From a virus, in the IMG/VR virus record IMGVR_UViG_3300015171_000019, positions 1-33,618 of that record: 33,618 nt of DNA; one strand, 5' to 3'. The notes under the pieces are model-generated. The model worked only from the letters and a program-made list of their open reading frames with translations. It was not told the DNA's origin and ran no database searches. The position numbers and the translations under genes were made by a program. Shown here piece after piece: positions 5,115-18,566 of the stretch (positions are counted from its first letter, which is position 1; each line of letters opens with the position of its first letter).

Positions 5115-7645
5115 TTGATGCCGAGTAACGGAATAAGTGACTTATATTCCTCAACAAACGCTTCGGCTATTTGCTTAGACCGCTTGGCTAGTTTTCTCAT
5201 TATGGGACACATCAACTCATCATGGATGTTCATTGGACGCACATGCCATTTATGAATGCCACATGGTTGGAGTGCCCAAAGACGATGTTCAAGAATCTTA
5301 GTAAGTTCAGCCCCTGTACTTTGGATTTTATGATTCCCCGCTGCCCGCATATTGGCACCTTGAAGTTGAAACATGGCTCCAAAGATAGCAGACTGAACAG
5401 CCCCTGATGCTGACTGTTCTCTGTCCTTACGCATCACTTTGAATTTGAACTTTCGCCAAGCGGGCGGCGGTTTTTCACCTAAGTCAAAAAGAGCTTTACA
5501 GATCATGTTCTCAAGAGTAAAGAATCTCTTGAATCCAAGCATCGATTCAACAAAGTCCCAAGGATCATTCCACTCAATCCTTGTTCCGATGCCACCTGGT
5601 TGACGTGCAGGACAGTACCTATCGTAGAAAACTTTACGCTTCTGATCCATAACTGGATACCGGCGCATAATCTCTTGATAGGCTGCTTCACCAAGAACCT
5701 CATCGATATTAAGACGAGATGCTAGAGTGAAAGCGTTTCCAAAGTAAATAAGCGCAAAGAAAGCAGACTTTGCACGAGTGTACAAGTCAACATCCGCGCC
5801 GTCAGTATCAATGATCTCCCAATAAGTCTTGGGCTTATAGACCATTGATCCAATGATTGCGTGGATCTTTACCTTGACAGGCTGCCCCTTCTCATCAAAG
5901 AGAGGTTTTCCATCTCGACCAGTCGCTTGAGAAATTAAATCCTTGTGTAGTTGAGGATCTTCATAGTAAGCATCGGCAATAGTAACCTCGAATGCGTCGA
6001 AGTCACCACCTACTAGAATCTCCTCCTCGCTTTCACCATCACTGAATTCTTTACAAACTGGACAATGACATCGTGCCGCGATGCGTGGAGGTAGTTCTAG
6101 ATATCGAAGCATACCATCAGTAAAGGCTATTTGAAACTGAGCTTTAACAAGCTTCTTCTTCTGGATACCTTGCGGGTTGATTGAGCCTGCTTTACCTTTA
6201 GTATGCTTGTGCTTCTTTTTCTTCTTTGCAGAATTCTTCTTGCCTCTACTCTTGCCGTCAGTGTTGCCGCCACCTGATTTACGTCCAGACCTGGCACCGA
6301 TGACATTGAAGTTAGCGTGAAGTCTACCTGCAATAAGAATCTTGTCGTAAAGTTCTTCTTCTTTCTTTGCCTTCTTAGATCCTAAGCAACCATCTGCTCG
6401 GATAGCAGCTTCTGACGGTTCAGTTCCTGTTCCTTTACATCTAGAACACTTCTCAGCCTTGCAACGACATTTCTGCTCATTGCAGTGAACAAACTTCTTA
6501 CCTGCACACTTGACGCAAACCTTGTCGTCTATTCTTTGCTTGGCAATTTCTTCAAGAACTTGCTTCTTAGTGCTAGGTCTCCCGTGCTCATCTTCGAGAC
6601 ACATCTTTTCTTCTTCCGAAAGAACTTCGGAAATATATGTCATGATTCTTGCAGGATGAATAGGAAAAAGAAGCTTCTTTTTAGCAGCTTTCTTTCTTAG
6701 AACTTCAATGCCCTTGAGATTAACAGCGTATCCCTTAAGGCGACCAGAACCTACGGCAATAGCTAGTTCAGAGTCGCGATCACCGAACTCAGGACAGCCC
6801 CACTTCTTCCACATTCTAATTGGAAGTGTAACATCTCGTTCAGCATACTTCCTAGCAAGTTCATTGTATATCCAATGAGTAATGTGATGTTGAGCTACTT
6901 CACACCATGCATTATTCCATTTACCTGGCTTACCAACAGCTGTAGCAAATGGAGCATAGGCAAACTCAGTAGGGAGAAATTTGTCTTGAATCTTGATATC
7001 AGCGTAGACAAGCGATTCTGACTCAGGAATCTCTAATGCATCAGTGGCTAGAGCCTTCATCCCGCCATCAGGTGCAAAGCCTAGCTCAAGATGAACAAAG
7101 TCATTGTCTAGAGGTATATCGATAATGCGCCAATGGGAAGTTGATTGCTTAGCCTTCTTAGCAAAGAAAATAGGTCTGAGCATCAACCTCTTTTCAAGTT
7201 CCTCTGCAAGTAAAGGAGCAAGTATACGAGGCACTCGTCGAATCCTAATTGGATCTCGACTCATCAAATTTTGATACGGACCTTTACGAGCATGAAGCAT
7301 AAGATCAAAGGCTTTAACTGGACGAAGACATGCCCCATCTCTAGCCAATTTCTCGGCAACACCCATATCATCAATAATGTCTATAGGATATGCGTCTGGC
7401 GGAAGAAGCTTAAGAGTATTATAAGTCTTACTCACGTGGAAGTGATCGAAGGCCAAATTAAAGCCTAGGACACCTCCCGGATGATGTATGATATATTCGA
7501 TAATTTCTAAAGTGTCTTTGATCTTTTCTGTGAAAATGCTATGTAAATTAACTGGCTTAGTTTCATCACCCGAATCCGACCATTGTAAGAGACACATTGC
7601 TCCGTGGAAACCTATGGTCTCGCTGTCTAAAGTGATGAAACTCAT
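5078..7645 (-). CDS. Family A DNA polymerase with 3'-5' exonuclease domain and zinc/lysine-rich insertions
   Basis: An 855-residue replicative polymerase of the PolA type. The N-terminus is a DEDD exonuclease: LDSET (6-10) and GFNLAFDHFHV (61-71). The polymerase motifs are motif A GGDFDAFEV (546-554, Asp548), motif B with K626, F630 and Y634 at the spacing of E. coli K758, F762 and Y766, and motif C NIHDE (806-810). Two insertions are unusual. Residues 377-403 hold seven cysteines in DnaJ-like CxxC knuckles. Residues 451-498 split the conserved GARSGR...NPQGIQ segment with a Lys/Gly-rich stretch including five lysines in a row. A further CHCPVC (526-531) lies just before motif A. Phe630 predicts good discrimination against dideoxynucleotides by analogy. 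It follows an HNH gene with an ATGA overlap. Confidence 0.93.
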   Translation of the reverse strand: MSFITLDSETIGFHGAMCLLQWSDSGDETKPVNLHSIFTEKIKDTLEIIEYIIHHPGGVLGFNLAFDHFHVSKTYNTLKLLPPDAYPIDIIDDMGVAEKLARDGACLRPVKAFDLMLHARKGPYQNLMSRDPIRIRRVPRILAPLLAEELEKRLMLRPIFFAKKAKQSTSHWRIIDIPLDNDFVHLELGFAPDGGMKALATDALEIPESESLVYADIKIQDKFLPTEFAYAPFATAVGKPGKWNNAWCEVAQHHITHWIYNELARKYAERDVTLPIRMWKKWGCPEFGDRDSELAIAVGSGRLKGYAVNLKGIEVLRKKAAKKKLLFPIHPARIMTYISEVLSEEEKMCLEDEHGRPSTKKQVLEEIAKQRIDDKVCVKCAGKKFVHCNEQKCRCKAEKCSRCKGTGTEPSEAAIRADGCLGSKKAKKEEELYDKILIAGRLHANFNVIGARSGRKSGGGNTDGKSRGKKNSAKKKKKHKHTKGKAGSINPQGIQKKKLVKAQFQIAFTDGMLRYLELPPRIAARCHCPVCKEFSDGESEEEILVGGDFDAFEVTIADAYYEDPQLHKDLISQATGRDGKPLFDEKGQPVKVKIHAIIGSMVYKPKTYWEIIDTDGADVDLYTRAKSAFFALIYFGNAFTLASRLNIDEVLGEAAYQEIMRRYPVMDQKRKVFYDRYCPARQPGGIGTRIEWNDPWDFVESMLGFKRFFTLENMICKALFDLGEKPPPAWRKFKFKVMRKDREQSASGAVQSAIFGAMFQLQGANMRAAGNHKIQSTGAELTKILEHRLWALQPCGIHKWHVRPMNIHDELMCPIMRKLAKRSKQIAEAFVEEYKSLIPLLGIKWKLFLSCWGAK

Positions 7646-8121
7646 AGGATGTCCTTATAAGACTCTCTGTTAAGTATACGCTTAACAACAGACCTATTAA
7701 CCCAATTAAGCCTAGCAATTTGTTCTTGAGTTAATCCTTGAGTATGTTGAAGACGAATAAGCCTTACTTGGTCAGCAGTAAGCGATGCTTGGTAGTTCTT
7801 AGTGCTAGTTATACTAATAAAGTCTTTCTTTCCTCTATGTTTGACTGCCCGATCCCATGCATTAGACTGATCGCTACCTTTAGTTAAGTATTTCGGATTA
7901 CAACAAGGAGGATTATCGCAAGTATGCATTACAATGTCTGGTCCAGCATCTTCTTTGCTTATAGCAAATGCAACTCTATGAGATCCAAGCATCTGATTAT
8001 TAATCCTGAACCAACCATACCCTTTAATATTGTGTGAAGCTTTCCATGGCCAACACTCATCTTCTGATCTAATATCAACTTTAGACCAGAAGCGAGCGAT
8101 ATCTGACTCGGATAACTTCAT
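7642..8121 (-). CDS. HNH homing endonuclease (HNH_3 type) with C-terminal helix-turn-helix
   Basis: A 159-residue free-standing endonuclease. The N-terminal half has the HNH_3 layout: CWPWK, GYGWFRI, SHRVAFAI, then VMHTCDNPPCCNPKYLTKGS, with His66 and the Cys cluster of the zinc-stabilised fold. The usual His in the CxNPxHL motif is Tyr here (NPKYL), which could weaken activity. Residues 113-157 form a helix-turn-helix of the type used by homing endonucleases for site recognition (LTADQVRLIR, then GLTQEQIARL). It is inserted exactly between the first parB-like gene and the polymerase, sharing ATGA or TGATG overlaps with both. This is typical of mobile endonucleases that settle next to essential replication genes without disrupting them. 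Confidence 0.9.
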   Translation of the reverse strand: MKLSESDIARFWSKVDIRSEDECWPWKASHNIKGYGWFRINNQMLGSHRVAFAISKEDAGPDIVMHTCDNPPCCNPKYLTKGSDQSNAWDRAVKHRGKKDFISITSTKNYQASLTADQVRLIRLQHTQGLTQEQIARLNWVNRSVVKRILNRESYKDIL

Positions 8122-9228: not shown

Positions 9229-9298
9229 TGACACGAAGTGGACTTGAACCACTACTACAGGATTGGTATCCAGTTTTCTAATCTTAAAATATCGTGTC
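9229..9298 (-). tRNA. tRNA, anticodon uncertain
   Basis: The acceptor stem GACACGA/TCGTGTC (seven perfect pairs), discriminator A and T arm AGTGG-TTCAAGT-CCACT are canonical. The D arm is TTTT-AAGATTAG-AAAA and lacks the usual GG. The anticodon stem ACTGG/CCTGT has a T-T mismatch and an eight-base loop ATACCAAT, so the anticodon could be ACC, TAC or CCA depending on register. The gene is 70 bases long. I call it tRNA-derived without assigning an amino acid. Confidence 0.65.
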
Positions 9299-9639: not shown

Positions 9640-9676
9640 AATCAAGACGCCGCCGCACGAACGAGGGAAAGTTAGA

Positions 9677-9770
9677 TGGAGTCGGTGGGAATCGAACCCA
9701 CGTGATGAAGCAGTTTCAAAAACTACGTCTACGTGTGTTAGTGAATTTATCGTCTACACAAAGACTATCC
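9677..9770 (-). tRNA. Atypical tRNA-Gln (TTG)-like gene
   Basis: The 3' half is good: anticodon arm GTAGT-TTTTGAA-ACTGC (9710-9726) reads TTG, the T arm is GTGGG-TTCGATT-CCCAC, and the 3' acceptor strand CGACTCC is followed by discriminator A at 9677. The 5' half is abnormal. The best partner strand is GGAtaGTC ending at 9770, which needs a two-base bulge. The D region is enlarged, with a TGTGT/ACACA stem and a seven-base direct repeat CGTCTAC (9726-9732 and 9751-9757). A canonical 5' end is not visible, so this may be a tRNA pseudogene or an interrupted gene. Confidence 0.5.
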
Positions 9771-9782
9771 TGATCTTAACCA

Positions 9783-9830
9783 GGCAATCGAGTGGATTCA
9801 GCCACCATTAGTCAGTCTTCCCTGACTGCC
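9783..9830 (-). ncRNA. 48-base acceptor/T-arm-like minihelix
   Basis: On the minus strand GGCAGTC pairs with GATTGCC over seven pairs including a G-T wobble. On the plus strand the same position would be an A-C mismatch, which suggests the minus strand is the RNA. Next to the 3' strand is a GGTGG...CCACT hairpin with loop CTGAAT, placed like a T arm. There is no room for D and anticodon arms. Its function is unknown. Confidence 0.4.
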
Positions 9831-10044
9831 ATCTAGTTGTGAACTAGCAACTTAATCCTTGGGTGTGCTCGTTAGGATTAGACGAGAACGGAAGCGCCGC
9901 AAAGAATCTCGGCATCTTCCATCGAGAGGCTGTTAGGAAAGCTATTCGCAGATACATTTTGATAGATAAGATTAACGAGGCCAACTATCATCCTCGGCAC
10001 GCAGTAGTAATCTCCACTACCCATTCGATACCAATTCGACCCCA
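9831..10044. other. Stretch without a convincing gene
   Basis: Between the tRNA cluster and the membrane-protein genes I find no tRNA and no convincing gene. A 65-codon rightward frame (GTG 9863 to 10060) and a 55-codon leftward frame (ATG 10045 to 9878) are both open on opposite strands, and neither has a ribosome binding site. Either could be real; I cannot choose. The promoter for the leftward tRNA cluster could lie here, but no clear -35/-10 pair is seen. Confidence 0.4.
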
Positions 10045-15004: not shown

Positions 15005-15499
15005 CTACCCTTTAATAGTTTGACCAATAAATTCGCCAAAGACTTCTTGTGCAGCAACTATATACGCCGCCGATGCTTCCTCAGGAGAAGCAAATGTTCC
15101 TAGATGGATTGATTTACCTTCAACACCTATTTTACCTACATAATTTCCATTAGACTTAGGATAGACACCCCTATAACCAGTCGGATTGCGCGCACCTAGT
15201 GAAGAATTTTGCCTAGTCTGAGTCCTAGTCGCTGCACGTAAATTTGATCTTGTATTATTTCTAGTGTTTCTATCTCTATGATCGACATCATCACTTATAT
15301 CTATATTAGACCGTTCAGCTACTTCTCGATGCATATAGATAAAATGAGAGATCTTTTGTTTGCGTCGCGGCAATCTTCTTACAGCATATGTCTTCCCATT
15401 ACAATTTCTTGCGGACCAATTAAATCCGACAAGCCAGTAGTAGTCTTCTTCATCTACGTCAACAGTTGAACCATCACTTAAATAGATCTGCTTAATCAT
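15005..15499 (-). CDS. HNH-AP2 homing endonuclease directly after tRNA-Ser
   Basis: A 164-residue HNH endonuclease with an AP2 DNA-binding domain. N-terminal signature: MIKQIYLSDGSTVDVDEEDY and WLVGFNWSA. The HNH core is YMHREVAE, then DVDHRDRNTRNNTRSNLRAA. The AP2-like part is TGYRGVYPKSNGNYVGKIGV, followed by HLGTFASPEEASAAYIVAA. Family alignment fixes the start at ATG 15499. That ATG lies one nucleotide after the discriminator base of tRNA-Ser, so there is no room for a ribosome binding site outside the tRNA. The second HNH-AP2 gene has the same arrangement. These are mobile endonucleases that spread by cutting an unoccupied allele. Confidence 0.88.
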   Translation of the reverse strand: MIKQIYLSDGSTVDVDEEDYYWLVGFNWSARNCNGKTYAVRRLPRRKQKISHFIYMHREVAERSNIDISDDVDHRDRNTRNNTRSNLRAATRTQTRQNSSLGARNPTGYRGVYPKSNGNYVGKIGVEGKSIHLGTFASPEEASAAYIVAAQEVFGEFIGQTIKG

Positions 15500-15500
15500 A

Positions 15501-15587
15501 CGGATGAGGAGGGAGTCGAACCCACACAACCCTCACGGGCTACTTGATTTCAAATCAAGGGCGATGCCAATTACGCTTTACCCATCC
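15501..15587 (-). tRNA. tRNA-Ser (TGA)
   Basis: An 87-base type II tRNA: acceptor GGATGGG/CTCATCC with one G-T pair, discriminator G, anticodon arm CTTGA-TTTGAAA-TCAAG reading TGA, a long variable arm GCCCGTGAGGGT, and a T loop TTCGACT. No CCA is encoded. The HNH-AP2 start codon follows one base after the discriminator. Confidence 0.93.
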
Positions 15588-15598
15588 AAATAAGATGC

Positions 15599-16683: not shown

Positions 16684-16752
16684 AGCGGGTGGGTGAAATC
16701 GAATCACCGAGCTAGGTTTGGAAGACCCGGCCATGAACCATCAATCACCCGC
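16684..16752 (-). tRNA. tRNA-Gly (TCC)
   Basis: The acceptor GCGGGTG/CACCCGC pairs perfectly and the discriminator is T, as is usual for bacterial tRNA-Gly. The anticodon arm CGGGT-CTTCCAA-ACCTA reads TCC with one mismatch at the stem base. The T loop is TTCGATT with a GGTGA/TCACC stem. No CCA is encoded. Confidence 0.88.
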
Positions 16753-16755
16753 AAA

Positions 16756-16898: not shown

Positions 16899-17702
16899 CT
16901 ACCGAGCCCGCTTCGTGGACTTCGTTTCCTCAACGGTCTCAACATCGTTCTTCGGAGGATTAAGAAACTTCGTAATCTGCTCCTGAATCTCCTCAGCAGG
17001 AGGAGAAACTCCAAACGGAGTCGAGCAATGACTGATGTCCATTCCCCACCAAGTGTAATTCGCCTTGCGCTTGATGGAAGAACGGAAAGTCACGAACGGA
17101 TTGAAGATCTTCGGCTCCTCGTCGAACCGAACGCCCTCAGCAAGCATCTCGACCCACTTGGGATCAGCGTGAGGAACCTTGGCATCCTTGAGATCGTGCC
17201 AAGCTTTCTTGAGTGCGCGACTCTTATCAAACTTCTGGAGGATCGTGTTAAGATCAGATGAAGACCGACGAGCCGTCTTCGAGCCACATAGCAGAGTATA
17301 CCAAGTCTTAAGACCCTTGAGATATCCAAGATATTCAGGACCGTAGAAGCATCCCGAATCCTTGACCTCGGACTCGTCCATGATCTTCTTGAACTCATCG
17401 TGTTCAGGATCAAAGAACGAGAAGATGCCTGCCGTATTCATACGAACAGCCTTAGCTCGACGAGCAAAGACAATCGTATCGAACTGATTAGTCAGGTCAT
17501 CGAAGGAATCATTGGAGCGAATCAGAAGATAGTTACCTGCCTTCTGACCCTTCTCCTTGCAGAGCTTGGAGTTGCCATCTAGAAGCTGCACACGCGGCAG
17601 ATACTTGTTGGCAGAAAGTGCATCAAGACTCTTGTTTCCCTGGCCCTCGGGCTGAATAGGGAAATCAAATCCATCAGAAACCTTAGCAATCTCATTACTC
17701 AT
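16899..17702 (-). CDS. Conserved phage protein, possible ssDNA-binding or replication protein
   Basis: A 267-residue protein with YLPRVQLLDGNSKLCKEK, FDTIVFARRAKAVRM, FDPEHDEFKKI, DSGCFYGPEYLGYL and LLCGSKTARR. I recognise this as a conserved family in many phages, without a firm function. It often lies near replication genes, and a nucleic-acid-binding role has been considered. The C-terminus is charged (VETVEETKSTKRAR). Codon choice is richer in C- and G-ending codons than most neighbours and resembles the third parB-like gene and the SH3-like gene, suggesting strong expression. Codon bias plus position next to a parB-like gene is all that supports a DNA-related role. Confidence 0.8.
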   Translation of the reverse strand: MSNEIAKVSDGFDFPIQPEGQGNKSLDALSANKYLPRVQLLDGNSKLCKEKGQKAGNYLLIRSNDSFDDLTNQFDTIVFARRAKAVRMNTAGIFSFFDPEHDEFKKIMDESEVKDSGCFYGPEYLGYLKGLKTWYTLLCGSKTARRSSSDLNTILQKFDKSRALKKAWHDLKDAKVPHADPKWVEMLAEGVRFDEEPKIFNPFVTFRSSIKRKANYTWWGMDISHCSTPFGVSPPAEEIQEQITKFLNPPKNDVETVEETKSTKRAR

Positions 17703-17741: not shown

Positions 17742-18203
17742 TTAGCTAGATATTTGTCCAATAAATTGTCCAAACAATACTCTGGCTGCTTTCTCATAAG
17801 CTATTGACGCCTCTATTGCAGTTGGAAAATAGCCTAAGAAAGTTCTAACAGAGTCTTTGTATATCTCAGCACCGTATGCGTGACCAGATGAACTAATTGA
17901 GACTCCTTTGTATCCAGATGTATTATTGGAATACATTGAAGTATTCATTTGATTTTGAGAACGGGTTGCTGATCTTAAATTAGATCTTTGGCAATTAAGT
18001 GAATTTCTGTCTATATGGTCTATCCTACCTTGTAGACCCATTAACTTAGCAATTTCAATGTGAAGGATTGCATCTATACCACGAACCCTACGTTTTGCAT
18101 ATTGGTGCTTATTTGTGTATGCACACCAGTTAAAGCATCCAAACAAATACCAATCTTCATCTACTTCAACAAGTGAACCATTGCTAAGTATAATGTGTTT
18201 CAT
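17742..18203 (-). CDS. HNH-AP2 homing endonuclease directly after a tRNA-like sequence
   Basis: A 153-residue homologue of the HNH-AP2 protein at 15005-15499. It begins MKHIILSNGSLVEVDED, with the HNH core ILHIEIAKLM, then RIDHIDRNSLNCQRSNLRSA, and the AP2-like part SGYKGVSISSSGHAYGAEIY, followed by FLGYFPTAIEASIAYEKAA. It ends FGQFIGQISS against FGEFIGQTIKG in its homologue. Family alignment places the start at ATG 18203, one nucleotide after the discriminator base of a tRNA-like sequence. The frame stays open upstream through that sequence, but the extra 16 residues are not family-like. No ribosome binding site is visible outside the tRNA-like sequence. Confidence 0.87.
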   Translation of the reverse strand: MKHIILSNGSLVEVDEDWYLFGCFNWCAYTNKHQYAKRRVRGIDAILHIEIAKLMGLQGRIDHIDRNSLNCQRSNLRSATRSQNQMNTSMYSNNTSGYKGVSISSSGHAYGAEIYKDSVRTFLGYFPTAIEASIAYEKAARVLFGQFIGQISS

Positions 18204-18204
18204 A

Positions 18205-18273
18205 TAGCTTCCAAGGGAATCGAACCCTAAATAGCCCCGACTAAGATGCAACGCACCTTAGACTGCCAAAGCT
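18205..18273 (-). tRNA. tRNA-like sequence with intact acceptor and T arm, anticodon unresolved
   Basis: On the minus strand AGCTTTG pairs with GGAAGCT over six positions, the discriminator is A, and the T arm is AGGG-TTCGATT-CCCT. Between them are 36-40 bases that fold as CTAAG...CTTAG with an inner TGC/GCA stem, not as separate D and anticodon arms. The total is 69 bases. It is either a degenerate tRNA or a diverged one; no amino acid can be assigned. The HNH-AP2 ATG follows one base later. Confidence 0.5.
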
Positions 18274-18277
18274 TCCA

Positions 18278-18503: not shown

Positions 18504-18566
18504 TAACGGTGAGTGGAGTCGAACCACTCAGAAGTAAAGGCGGAAACTTCCACACCAATACCGTTA
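18504..18566 (-). tRNA. D-armless tRNA-like sequence
   Basis: The acceptor strands TAACGGT/ACCGTTA pair perfectly and stack directly on a six-pair T arm GAGTGG-TTCGACT-CCACTC. The anticodon-type arm is GAAGT/ACTTC with a ten-base loop TTCCGCCTTT. Only nine bases (ATTGGTGTG) stand where the D arm should be, so the whole is about 63 bases. It resembles truncated mitochondrial tRNAs more than phage ones. The anticodon is not clear (CCG, CGC or GCC). It may be a pseudogene. Confidence 0.5.

What the first reader, a model, noticed from the sequence alone, without database searches (positions are those of the whole stretch)
18203..18273. Second HNH-AP2 gene with the same one-nucleotide spacing to a tRNA-like sequence
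The paralogous endonuclease begins at 18203, and the discriminator base of a tRNA-like sequence is at 18205, the same T-ATG junction as at 15499. Two independent copies with identical spacing in one genome argue against coincidence. They suggest the tRNA 3' end is the insertion site (the junction defines the homing target) or part of the expression mechanism. Here the tRNA itself is degenerate, perhaps damaged by or coevolving with the insertion.
Basis: partly seen in the sequence, partly recalled or inferred. Interest (0 to 1): 0.72.

Follow-up and report, generated by a model that had tools for sequence, protein, structure and literature searches.

The report
Homing-type nuclease gene abutting tRNA remnant
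A phage gene for a DNA-cutting enzyme of a selfish, mobile type starts one base after a worn-down tRNA; a second such gene sits the same way behind an intact tRNA, but relatives show this is mostly ordinary tight packing and not a special tRNA target.

Summary
On the minus strand a 70-nt tRNA-like sequence (18274-18205: full-length acceptor stem, T-arm, no D-arm) is followed by one T and then the ATG (18203) of a 153-aa HNH_3/AP2-type endonuclease gene. The second HNH/AP2 gene (ATG 15499) stands at the same spacing behind tRNA-Ser(UGA). The tRNA-like is not chance: 0 hits in 150 shuffles. In the conserved ParB-to-next-gene slot, 0 of 47 syntenic relatives carry an HNH gene; 3 carry an ARAGORN-called tRNA and a fourth a canonical T-arm. 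So the gene is an insertion, or a lineage-specific gene, behind tRNA-like RNA. But 24 of 24 HNH/AP2 genes scored in relatives have no tRNA upstream. The spacing is not shared. T follows the discriminator in 8 of 10 tRNA-type T-arms here, and a third "T-ATG" opens only three codons. Abutting the upstream gene is usual for this nuclease family: 10 of 16 annotated phage copies start within 8 nt of the preceding gene's end. Degenerate tRNA-likes also occur without a nuclease. HNH genes beside phage tRNAs are known (T5 hegA/hegC; T4 SegB). Best reading: free-standing homing-type endonucleases parked at gene ends, two of which happen to be tRNAs.

The parts
17742..18203 (-). HNH1: 153-aa HNH_3-type endonuclease with AP2-like C-terminal part (P0001)
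   Evidence: Pfam HNH_3 28.3 bits over its cut-off 24.8; family residues H48, D62-H63, N75-L76-R77, N87 kept, AP2-like tail aligns with the AP2 part of relatives; GC3 25.3%
18204..18204 (-). the single T between discriminator and ATG
   Evidence: sequence
18205..18274 (-). 70-nt tRNA-like sequence without a D-arm: acceptor 6/7, T-arm 4/5, discriminator A
18504..18566 (-). second shortened tRNA-like (63 nt), no gene abutting it
   Evidence: acceptor 6/7, T-stem 5/5; fold z -3.29, 0 of 200 shuffles as stable; sub-threshold tRNA-Sec match 17.6 bits
15005..15499 (-). HNH2: 164-aa HNH_3 + AP2 endonuclease (P0002)
   Evidence: Pfam HNH_3 28.7 bits over cut-off; AP2 26.6 bits, below its cut-off 33.3; GC3 26.1%
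15501..15587 (-). tRNA-Ser(UGA), acceptor 7/7, discriminator G15501
   Evidence: ARAGORN 15500-15588; ends set by acceptor pairing
16684..16753 (-). tRNA-Gly(UCC)-like with short D-arm; next gene's ATG 10 nt away
9229..9298 (-). tRNA with 8-nt anticodon loop, also followed by T-ATG but with a 3-codon ORF: built-in chance control
7642..8121 (-). third HNH gene, overlapping the end of ParB2 by 1 nt: same tight packing behind a protein gene
   Evidence: phrog_1872/3593/6254; gap -1; HNH_3 only 11 bits
18624..19658 (-). ParB-like gene, left border of the slot
   Evidence: Pfam ParB_N and HTH_ParB; homologue found in 49 of the 80 relatives
16899..17702 (-). 267-aa conserved gene, right border of the slot
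   Evidence: no Pfam or PHROGs family; homologue found in 48 of the 80 relatives

Best explanation
Two free-standing homing-type endonuclease genes (HNH nuclease plus AP2 DNA-binding part) have settled in variable slots between conserved replication genes of an uncultivated phage. Like most members of their family they begin exactly where the preceding gene ends, so that nothing is disrupted. In these two cases the preceding gene is a tRNA, one intact and one worn down. By analogy with known free-standing phage homing endonucleases, the enzyme would cut an allele that lacks it and be copied across by recombination, the cut site lying in or near flanking conserved sequence. Shown: gene family, absence from the slot in relatives, presence of tRNAs without the nuclease in that slot in a few relatives, foreign base composition, intact conserved residues. 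Inferred: cutting activity, homing, target. The identical spacing is mostly a product of tight packing plus the common T after the discriminator.
For: HNH_3 (both) and AP2 (HNH2) matches and kept conserved residues. Slot ParB1-to-o16899: HNH in 0 of 47 relatives; ARAGORN tRNA in L011, L055 and L071, canonical T-arm in L023. GC3 25-29% in all three HNH genes, 32.5-66.4% in the 11 other genes measured. Abutting is the family's habit: of 16 annotated phage copies fetched, 10 start within 8 nt of the preceding gene's end, L004 overlaps its neighbour's stop by 4 nt, and the window's third HNH overlaps ParB2 by 1 nt. HNH/AP2 genes of relatives without tRNA: 24 of 24 (23, L004). T5 hegC and hegA begin 17 and 23 nt behind tRNA genes and the 3' end of hegD overlaps a tRNA marked as pseudogene; T4 segB lies between tRNA-Arg and tRNA-Ile (PMC2988022, passages).
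Against: Two of the window's three HNH genes behind tRNAs at exactly one nucleotide is suggestive: only a handful of the window's genes follow a tRNA. In L032 an endonuclease gene of a different family (PDDEXK_5, broken by a stop) also abuts a tRNA, and L103 has a broken HNH/AP2 gene behind tRNA-Met, so tRNA ends may be preferred more than packing alone predicts. No relative close enough to show the same site with and without the gene was found (nearest polymerase 46%), so insertion, as against loss in others, is inferred. No nuclease activity was tested.
Confidence: 0.75

Rival explanations
1. The tRNA 3' end is the homing site: the enzyme recognises T-arm/acceptor DNA and insertion always leaves discriminator-T-ATG.
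For: Same junction twice in the window; 3 relatives with an ARAGORN-called tRNA and one with a canonical T-arm, but no nuclease, in the slot; T4 SegB is listed with the tRNA intergenic region as target (PMC2988022) and reported as frequently associated with tRNAs (PMC13096335, passages).
Against: 0 of 24 HNH/AP2 genes in relatives follow a tRNA. A viral-contig scan for T-arm + 2-32 nt + an HNH/AP2-like start gave 13 stretches (the window's own record is left out of that scan); only L103 encodes an HNH/AP2 N-terminus, at 11-17 nt. The two junction tRNAs differ apart from the T-loop: longest shared word in the flanks 8 nt. No target duplication: longest repeat between HNH1's flanks 8 nt, none of 7 nt or more for HNH2.
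Confidence: 0.1
2. Expression mechanism: 3' processing of the tRNA(-like) frees a nearly leaderless nuclease mRNA (U-AUG...), or the folded tRNA hides the start and keeps expression low.
For: HNH2 has no Shine-Dalgarno (duplex +0.4 kcal/mol) and HNH1 a weak one (-3.3) inside the acceptor strand, while 23 of the 30 other starts examined in the window score -3.1 or stronger. Other genes of the group also start 0-3 nt after tRNAs: L047 methyltransferase, L038 and L087 small proteins, L160 161-aa ORF, L032 PDDEXK_5. RNA structures that sequester the start region of T4 homing endonucleases are described (PMC2988022).
Against: No enrichment of ATG directly behind T-arms in 50 relatives' records: 17 places over 4 offsets (4.25 each) against 111 over 26 offsets further on (4.3 each) (the control also holds ordinary starts with ribosome sites). 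Several other window starts are as poor (o11107 +0.4, 32462 +0.4, prim -0.9). No expression data.
Confidence: 0.1
3. One event, not two: an ancestral tRNA-HNH pair was duplicated inside this phage and the pairs diverged.
For: HNH1 and HNH2 are each other's closest by identity (42% over 150 columns); holding them together is not rejected (p-AU 0.202).
Against: The best tree separates them: HNH1 with L122 (91/88, not starred), HNH2 unplaced, its best BLAST score being L131. The two tRNAs are unlike (a class II tRNA-Ser and a D-armless 70-mer).
Confidence: 0.2

Closest known systems
HNH endonucleases of the phage T5 tRNA region (hegA, hegC, hegD; AY543070)
   Same: HNH genes inside a phage tRNA region; hegC and hegA begin 17 and 23 nt behind a tRNA 3' end; the 3' ends of hegC and hegD overlap the next tRNA, one of them marked as a pseudogene; tRNA-like stable RNAs lie nearby.
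   Different: Spacing 17-23 nt, not one; the annotation names IPR002711/IPR010902 for hegC and hegD and no AP2 part for any of the three; T5 is not a relative of this phage as far as tested (window polymerase: no match in 'phages').
HNH + AP2 homing endonucleases of phages ('IPA-HNH' of ICP1 phages, PMC10448857)
   Same: N-terminal HNH and C-terminal AP2 domain, free-standing, described as enriched in diverse phage lineages (passages read).
   Different: The terms searched in that paper (tRNA, AP2) gave no passage placing these genes behind tRNAs.
T4 SegB
   Same: Free-standing homing endonuclease gene between tRNA genes; in T6 it drives amplification of a tRNA locus; association with tRNAs reported as frequent (PMC2988022, PMC13096335; passages and abstract).
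   Different: GIY-YIG nuclease family, not HNH/AP2.

Membership tests
Free-standing HNH/AP2 homing endonucleases | HNH_3 nuclease domain | tested here: met
   28.3 and 28.7 bits, cut-off 24.8
Free-standing HNH/AP2 homing endonucleases | C-terminal AP2 domain | tested here: inconclusive
   HNH2 26.6 bits, under the cut-off 33.3; HNH1 no Pfam AP2 match but its tail aligns with AP2 tails of relatives; homologue P0003 is over the cut-off at 33.6
Free-standing HNH/AP2 homing endonucleases | not within an intron or intein | tested here: met
   own ATG at the family start, stop 39 nt and 45 nt before the next gene; Rfam scans of the window list no intron family
Free-standing HNH/AP2 homing endonucleases | presence/absence polymorphism at the site | tested here: met
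   0 of 47 syntenic relatives carry it in the slot, but they are distant (polymerase at most 46%)
Free-standing HNH/AP2 homing endonucleases | site-specific cutting and super-Mendelian inheritance | not testable with these tools
   needs protein and co-infection
tRNA-targeting homing endonuclease (SegB-like in action) | cleavage in or by the tRNA | not testable with these tools
   no empty allele of a close relative was found
tRNA-targeting homing endonuclease (SegB-like in action) | recurrent tRNA adjacency across related copies | tested here: not met
   0 of 24 in relatives, 0 of 16 annotated phages; 1 other contig, L103
canonical tRNA gene (18274-18205) | full cloverleaf with D-arm and anticodon loop | tested here: not met

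The most novel reading that the evidence does not exclude
tRNA punctuation in a phage: tRNAs and shortened tRNA-like top halves serve as processing signals, and cutting just after the discriminator releases U-AUG leaderless mRNAs, here for mobile endonucleases, so that expression of the mobile gene is tied to tRNA maturation.
Probability: 0.07. Interest if true: 0.6.

Novelty: new member of a known kind. Interest (0 to 1): 0.25.

Why it matters
It corrects a tempting inference: identical one-base spacing to a tRNA does not by itself make the tRNA the homing target. It also adds an unusual, tighter case to the known tie between phage tRNA loci and mobile endonucleases, a tie that matters because such endonucleases can move or multiply tRNA genes. 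If the starts right behind tRNAs in this phage group prove to be leaderless messages made by tRNA processing, that would be new for phages as far as my few literature searches went.

Tried and rejected
Close relatives: the search for related loci with HNH1, HNH2, the ParB-like and the 267-aa protein gave no locus in viral contigs; blastn of 5.2 kb against phages gave none. The polymerase gave one relative, L004, and the two-row polymerase alignment gave 80 (90 found, 80 kept). Alignment A3 of the HNH proteins gave 2 viral and 8 genome loci; 0 of these 10 have an ARAGORN tRNA anywhere in the locus.

Insertion duplication (integrase-like) was considered and rejected: longest repeat between HNH1's flanks 8 nt, none of 7 nt or more for HNH2. 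An intron in the tRNA-like was considered; Rfam lists none. Tree: unsettled bootstrap, few supported forks, so no claim of single or double origin.

Rows dropped: one search keeps only HNH matches whose N-terminus is in the match (model start at or before 12) and drops identical copies, leaving 31 rows (23 from relatives' records, 8 others); the matches without N-terminus were not judged for tRNA adjacency. One search keeps relatives with both border genes found in the stated order: 47 of 80. The 10 regions were judged by annotation alone, without ARAGORN. In L197 the annotated start is unsure. Searches asked 79 of the 80 relatives' records (L004's was not asked; L012's was asked twice) plus L103's; some searches asked 50 of the 80. 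Most literature was seen as listings and passages only.

Full report
What is there. The window is a whole IMG/VR record of 33,618 bases, linear and probably a fragment. On its minus strand a ParB-like gene (19658-18624) is followed by a 63-nt tRNA-like (18566-18504), 229 nt of non-coding sequence, a 70-nt tRNA-like (18274-18205), one T, and a 153-aa HNH_3 gene (18203-17742). A conserved 267-aa gene comes 39 nt later. The second HNH gene (15499-15005, 164 aa, HNH_3 plus a sub-threshold AP2 match) stands one T behind tRNA-Ser(UGA) (15587-15501) and 45 nt before a helicase-like gene.

Is it more than chance? The tRNA-like is. A scan for a GG-TTCGA-CC T-arm with an acceptor of at least 6 pairs finds 6 on the minus strand, 0 on the plus strand and 0 in 150 dinucleotide shuffles of the minus strand. 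It is not a normal tRNA: no D-arm, a T-T mismatch in the T-stem, a G-G mismatch in the acceptor, and a central 9-bp hairpin in the predicted fold. ARAGORN's default does not call it. The T-ATG junction is weaker evidence. T follows the discriminator in 8 of 10 tRNA-type T-arms on this strand, the tmRNA included, and the tRNA at 9298-9229 is followed by T-ATG with a three-codon ORF. In 50 of the relatives' records ATG occurs at the first four offsets behind a T-arm 17 times (4.25 per offset) and at the next 26 offsets 111 times (4.3 per offset), so there is no general pull towards this junction. The control includes ordinary start codons with ribosome sites, so it is a conservative comparison.

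What the protein is. Both proteins keep the family's invariant residues (H48, D62-H63, N75-L76-R77, N87 in HNH1 numbering) and show no frame break. Their third-codon GC is 25-26%, against 32.5-66.4% for the 11 non-HNH genes measured, as expected of a recent arrival. A third HNH gene (8121-7642; HNH families of PHROGs) has 29.4% and overlaps the end of a ParB-like gene by one nucleotide. So all three HNH genes of the window start within two nucleotides of the end of whatever precedes them.

Relatives. No close relative was found. Through the polymerase, 80 distant relatives were fetched (best-segment identity 30-46%). They share the order primase | ParB1, o16899, o16158, helicase, ParB2, polymerase. 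In 47 of 80 both borders of the HNH1 slot could be placed. None of the 47 has an HNH gene there. ARAGORN calls a tRNA in 3 (L011, the closest, with a CTA anticodon; L055; L071), and a canonical T-arm lies in a fourth, L023. L071 also has a second, tRNA-like element there. The slot is thus a place where tRNA-like RNAs come and go, and HNH1 is peculiar to this lineage in the sample.

Where else do these nucleases sit? In the relatives' records 23 HNH/AP2 N-termini were scored and none has an ARAGORN tRNA within 1500 nt upstream on its strand; L004's copy likewise has none. That makes 0 of 24. Of 8 further copies from phages, viral contigs and genomes in the same call, 1 has a tRNA upstream: L103, tRNA-Met, 11-17 nt before a broken HNH/AP2 gene. 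In 16 annotated phage regions fetched, 0 show a tRNA beside the gene; 10 of 16 start within 8 nt of the preceding gene's end, usually overlapping its stop. A scan of viral contigs for a T-arm followed within 2-32 nt by an HNH/AP2-like start found 13 stretches, of which only L103 encodes an HNH/AP2 N-terminus; the window's own record is left out of that scan.

Are tRNA starts used by other genes of the group? Yes, in a few. The ATG is 0-3 nt past the ARAGORN tRNA end for a methyltransferase-like gene (L047), two related small proteins (L038, L087), a 161-aa ORF (L160) and a PDDEXK_5 endonuclease broken by a stop after 48 codons (L032). The spacings differ (0, 2, 3 and 3 nt), so nothing ties one exact junction to HNH genes. 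That a second endonuclease family is among them is a point in favour of tRNA ends as landing places, and I count it against my own reading.

Mechanism. Most likely these are free-standing homing endonuclease genes that insert, or survive, only where they break nothing, that is exactly at the end of a gene. When that gene is protein-coding, the start overlaps its stop codon and can be coupled to its translation, as is described for T4 mobE (PMC2988022, passages). When it is a tRNA no ribosome arrives, and the start must be found unaided. HNH2 has no Shine-Dalgarno (+0.4 kcal/mol) and HNH1 a weak one (-3.3) lying in the acceptor strand, so low expression is expected (inference). Release of a U-AUG message by tRNA 3' processing is possible and would be the more novel reading; nothing here tests it.

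One event or two? The two proteins are 42% identical, each the other's closest by identity, but the best tree separates them and the test of one clade gives p-AU 0.202. 'Two independent copies' is therefore not established.

Known context. T5 carries HNH genes in its tRNA region; in the record fetched, hegC and hegA begin 17 and 23 nt behind tRNAs, and the 3' end of hegD overlaps a tRNA marked as pseudogene. [quoted passage not shown] T4 SegB lies between tRNA-Arg and tRNA-Ile (PMC2988022), and SegB is reported as frequently associated with tRNAs and able to amplify a tRNA locus (PMC13096335, abstract and passages). HNH+AP2 homing endonucleases are a described phage family (PMC10448857, passages). 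A search for 'homing endonuclease', 'downstream of a tRNA' and 'phage' gave one unrelated paper. I therefore file this as a new member of a known kind, with unusually tight spacing.

Noticed in passing
L113 464, L124 1501, L140 1501, L142 1504 (records G043, G022, G066, G068): HNH/AP2 reading frames run in frame out of an unnamed protein at the same motif (FLDYG[TL]LYG) in four related phages: a shared, exact insertion point, and a far better candidate for a defined homing site (perhaps an intron ORF). Seen; Pfam gave no name for the host protein.
   Followed up: partly
L011 3279-3352: tRNA with anticodon CTA (would read amber UAG), in the same slot as the window's tRNA-likes.
   Followed up: no
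window 18504-18566: 63-nt tRNA-like with good acceptor and T-arm and a fold more stable than all 200 shuffles (z -3.29); function unknown.
   Followed up: partly
L023 5366-5532: T-arm and acceptor-like end with roughly 100 nt of structured sequence where an anticodon arm would be: perhaps an interrupted tRNA; no convincing Rfam match.
   Followed up: partly
L032 7563-7782: tRNA-Asn, then TT, then ATG of a PDDEXK_5 endonuclease broken by an in-frame stop after 48 codons.
   Followed up: yes
window 9674-10043: phage-encoded tmRNA (Rfam 90.3 bits) upstream of a run of four tRNAs called by Rfam (tRNA-Arg, Val, Ala and the 9298-9229 one).
   Followed up: no
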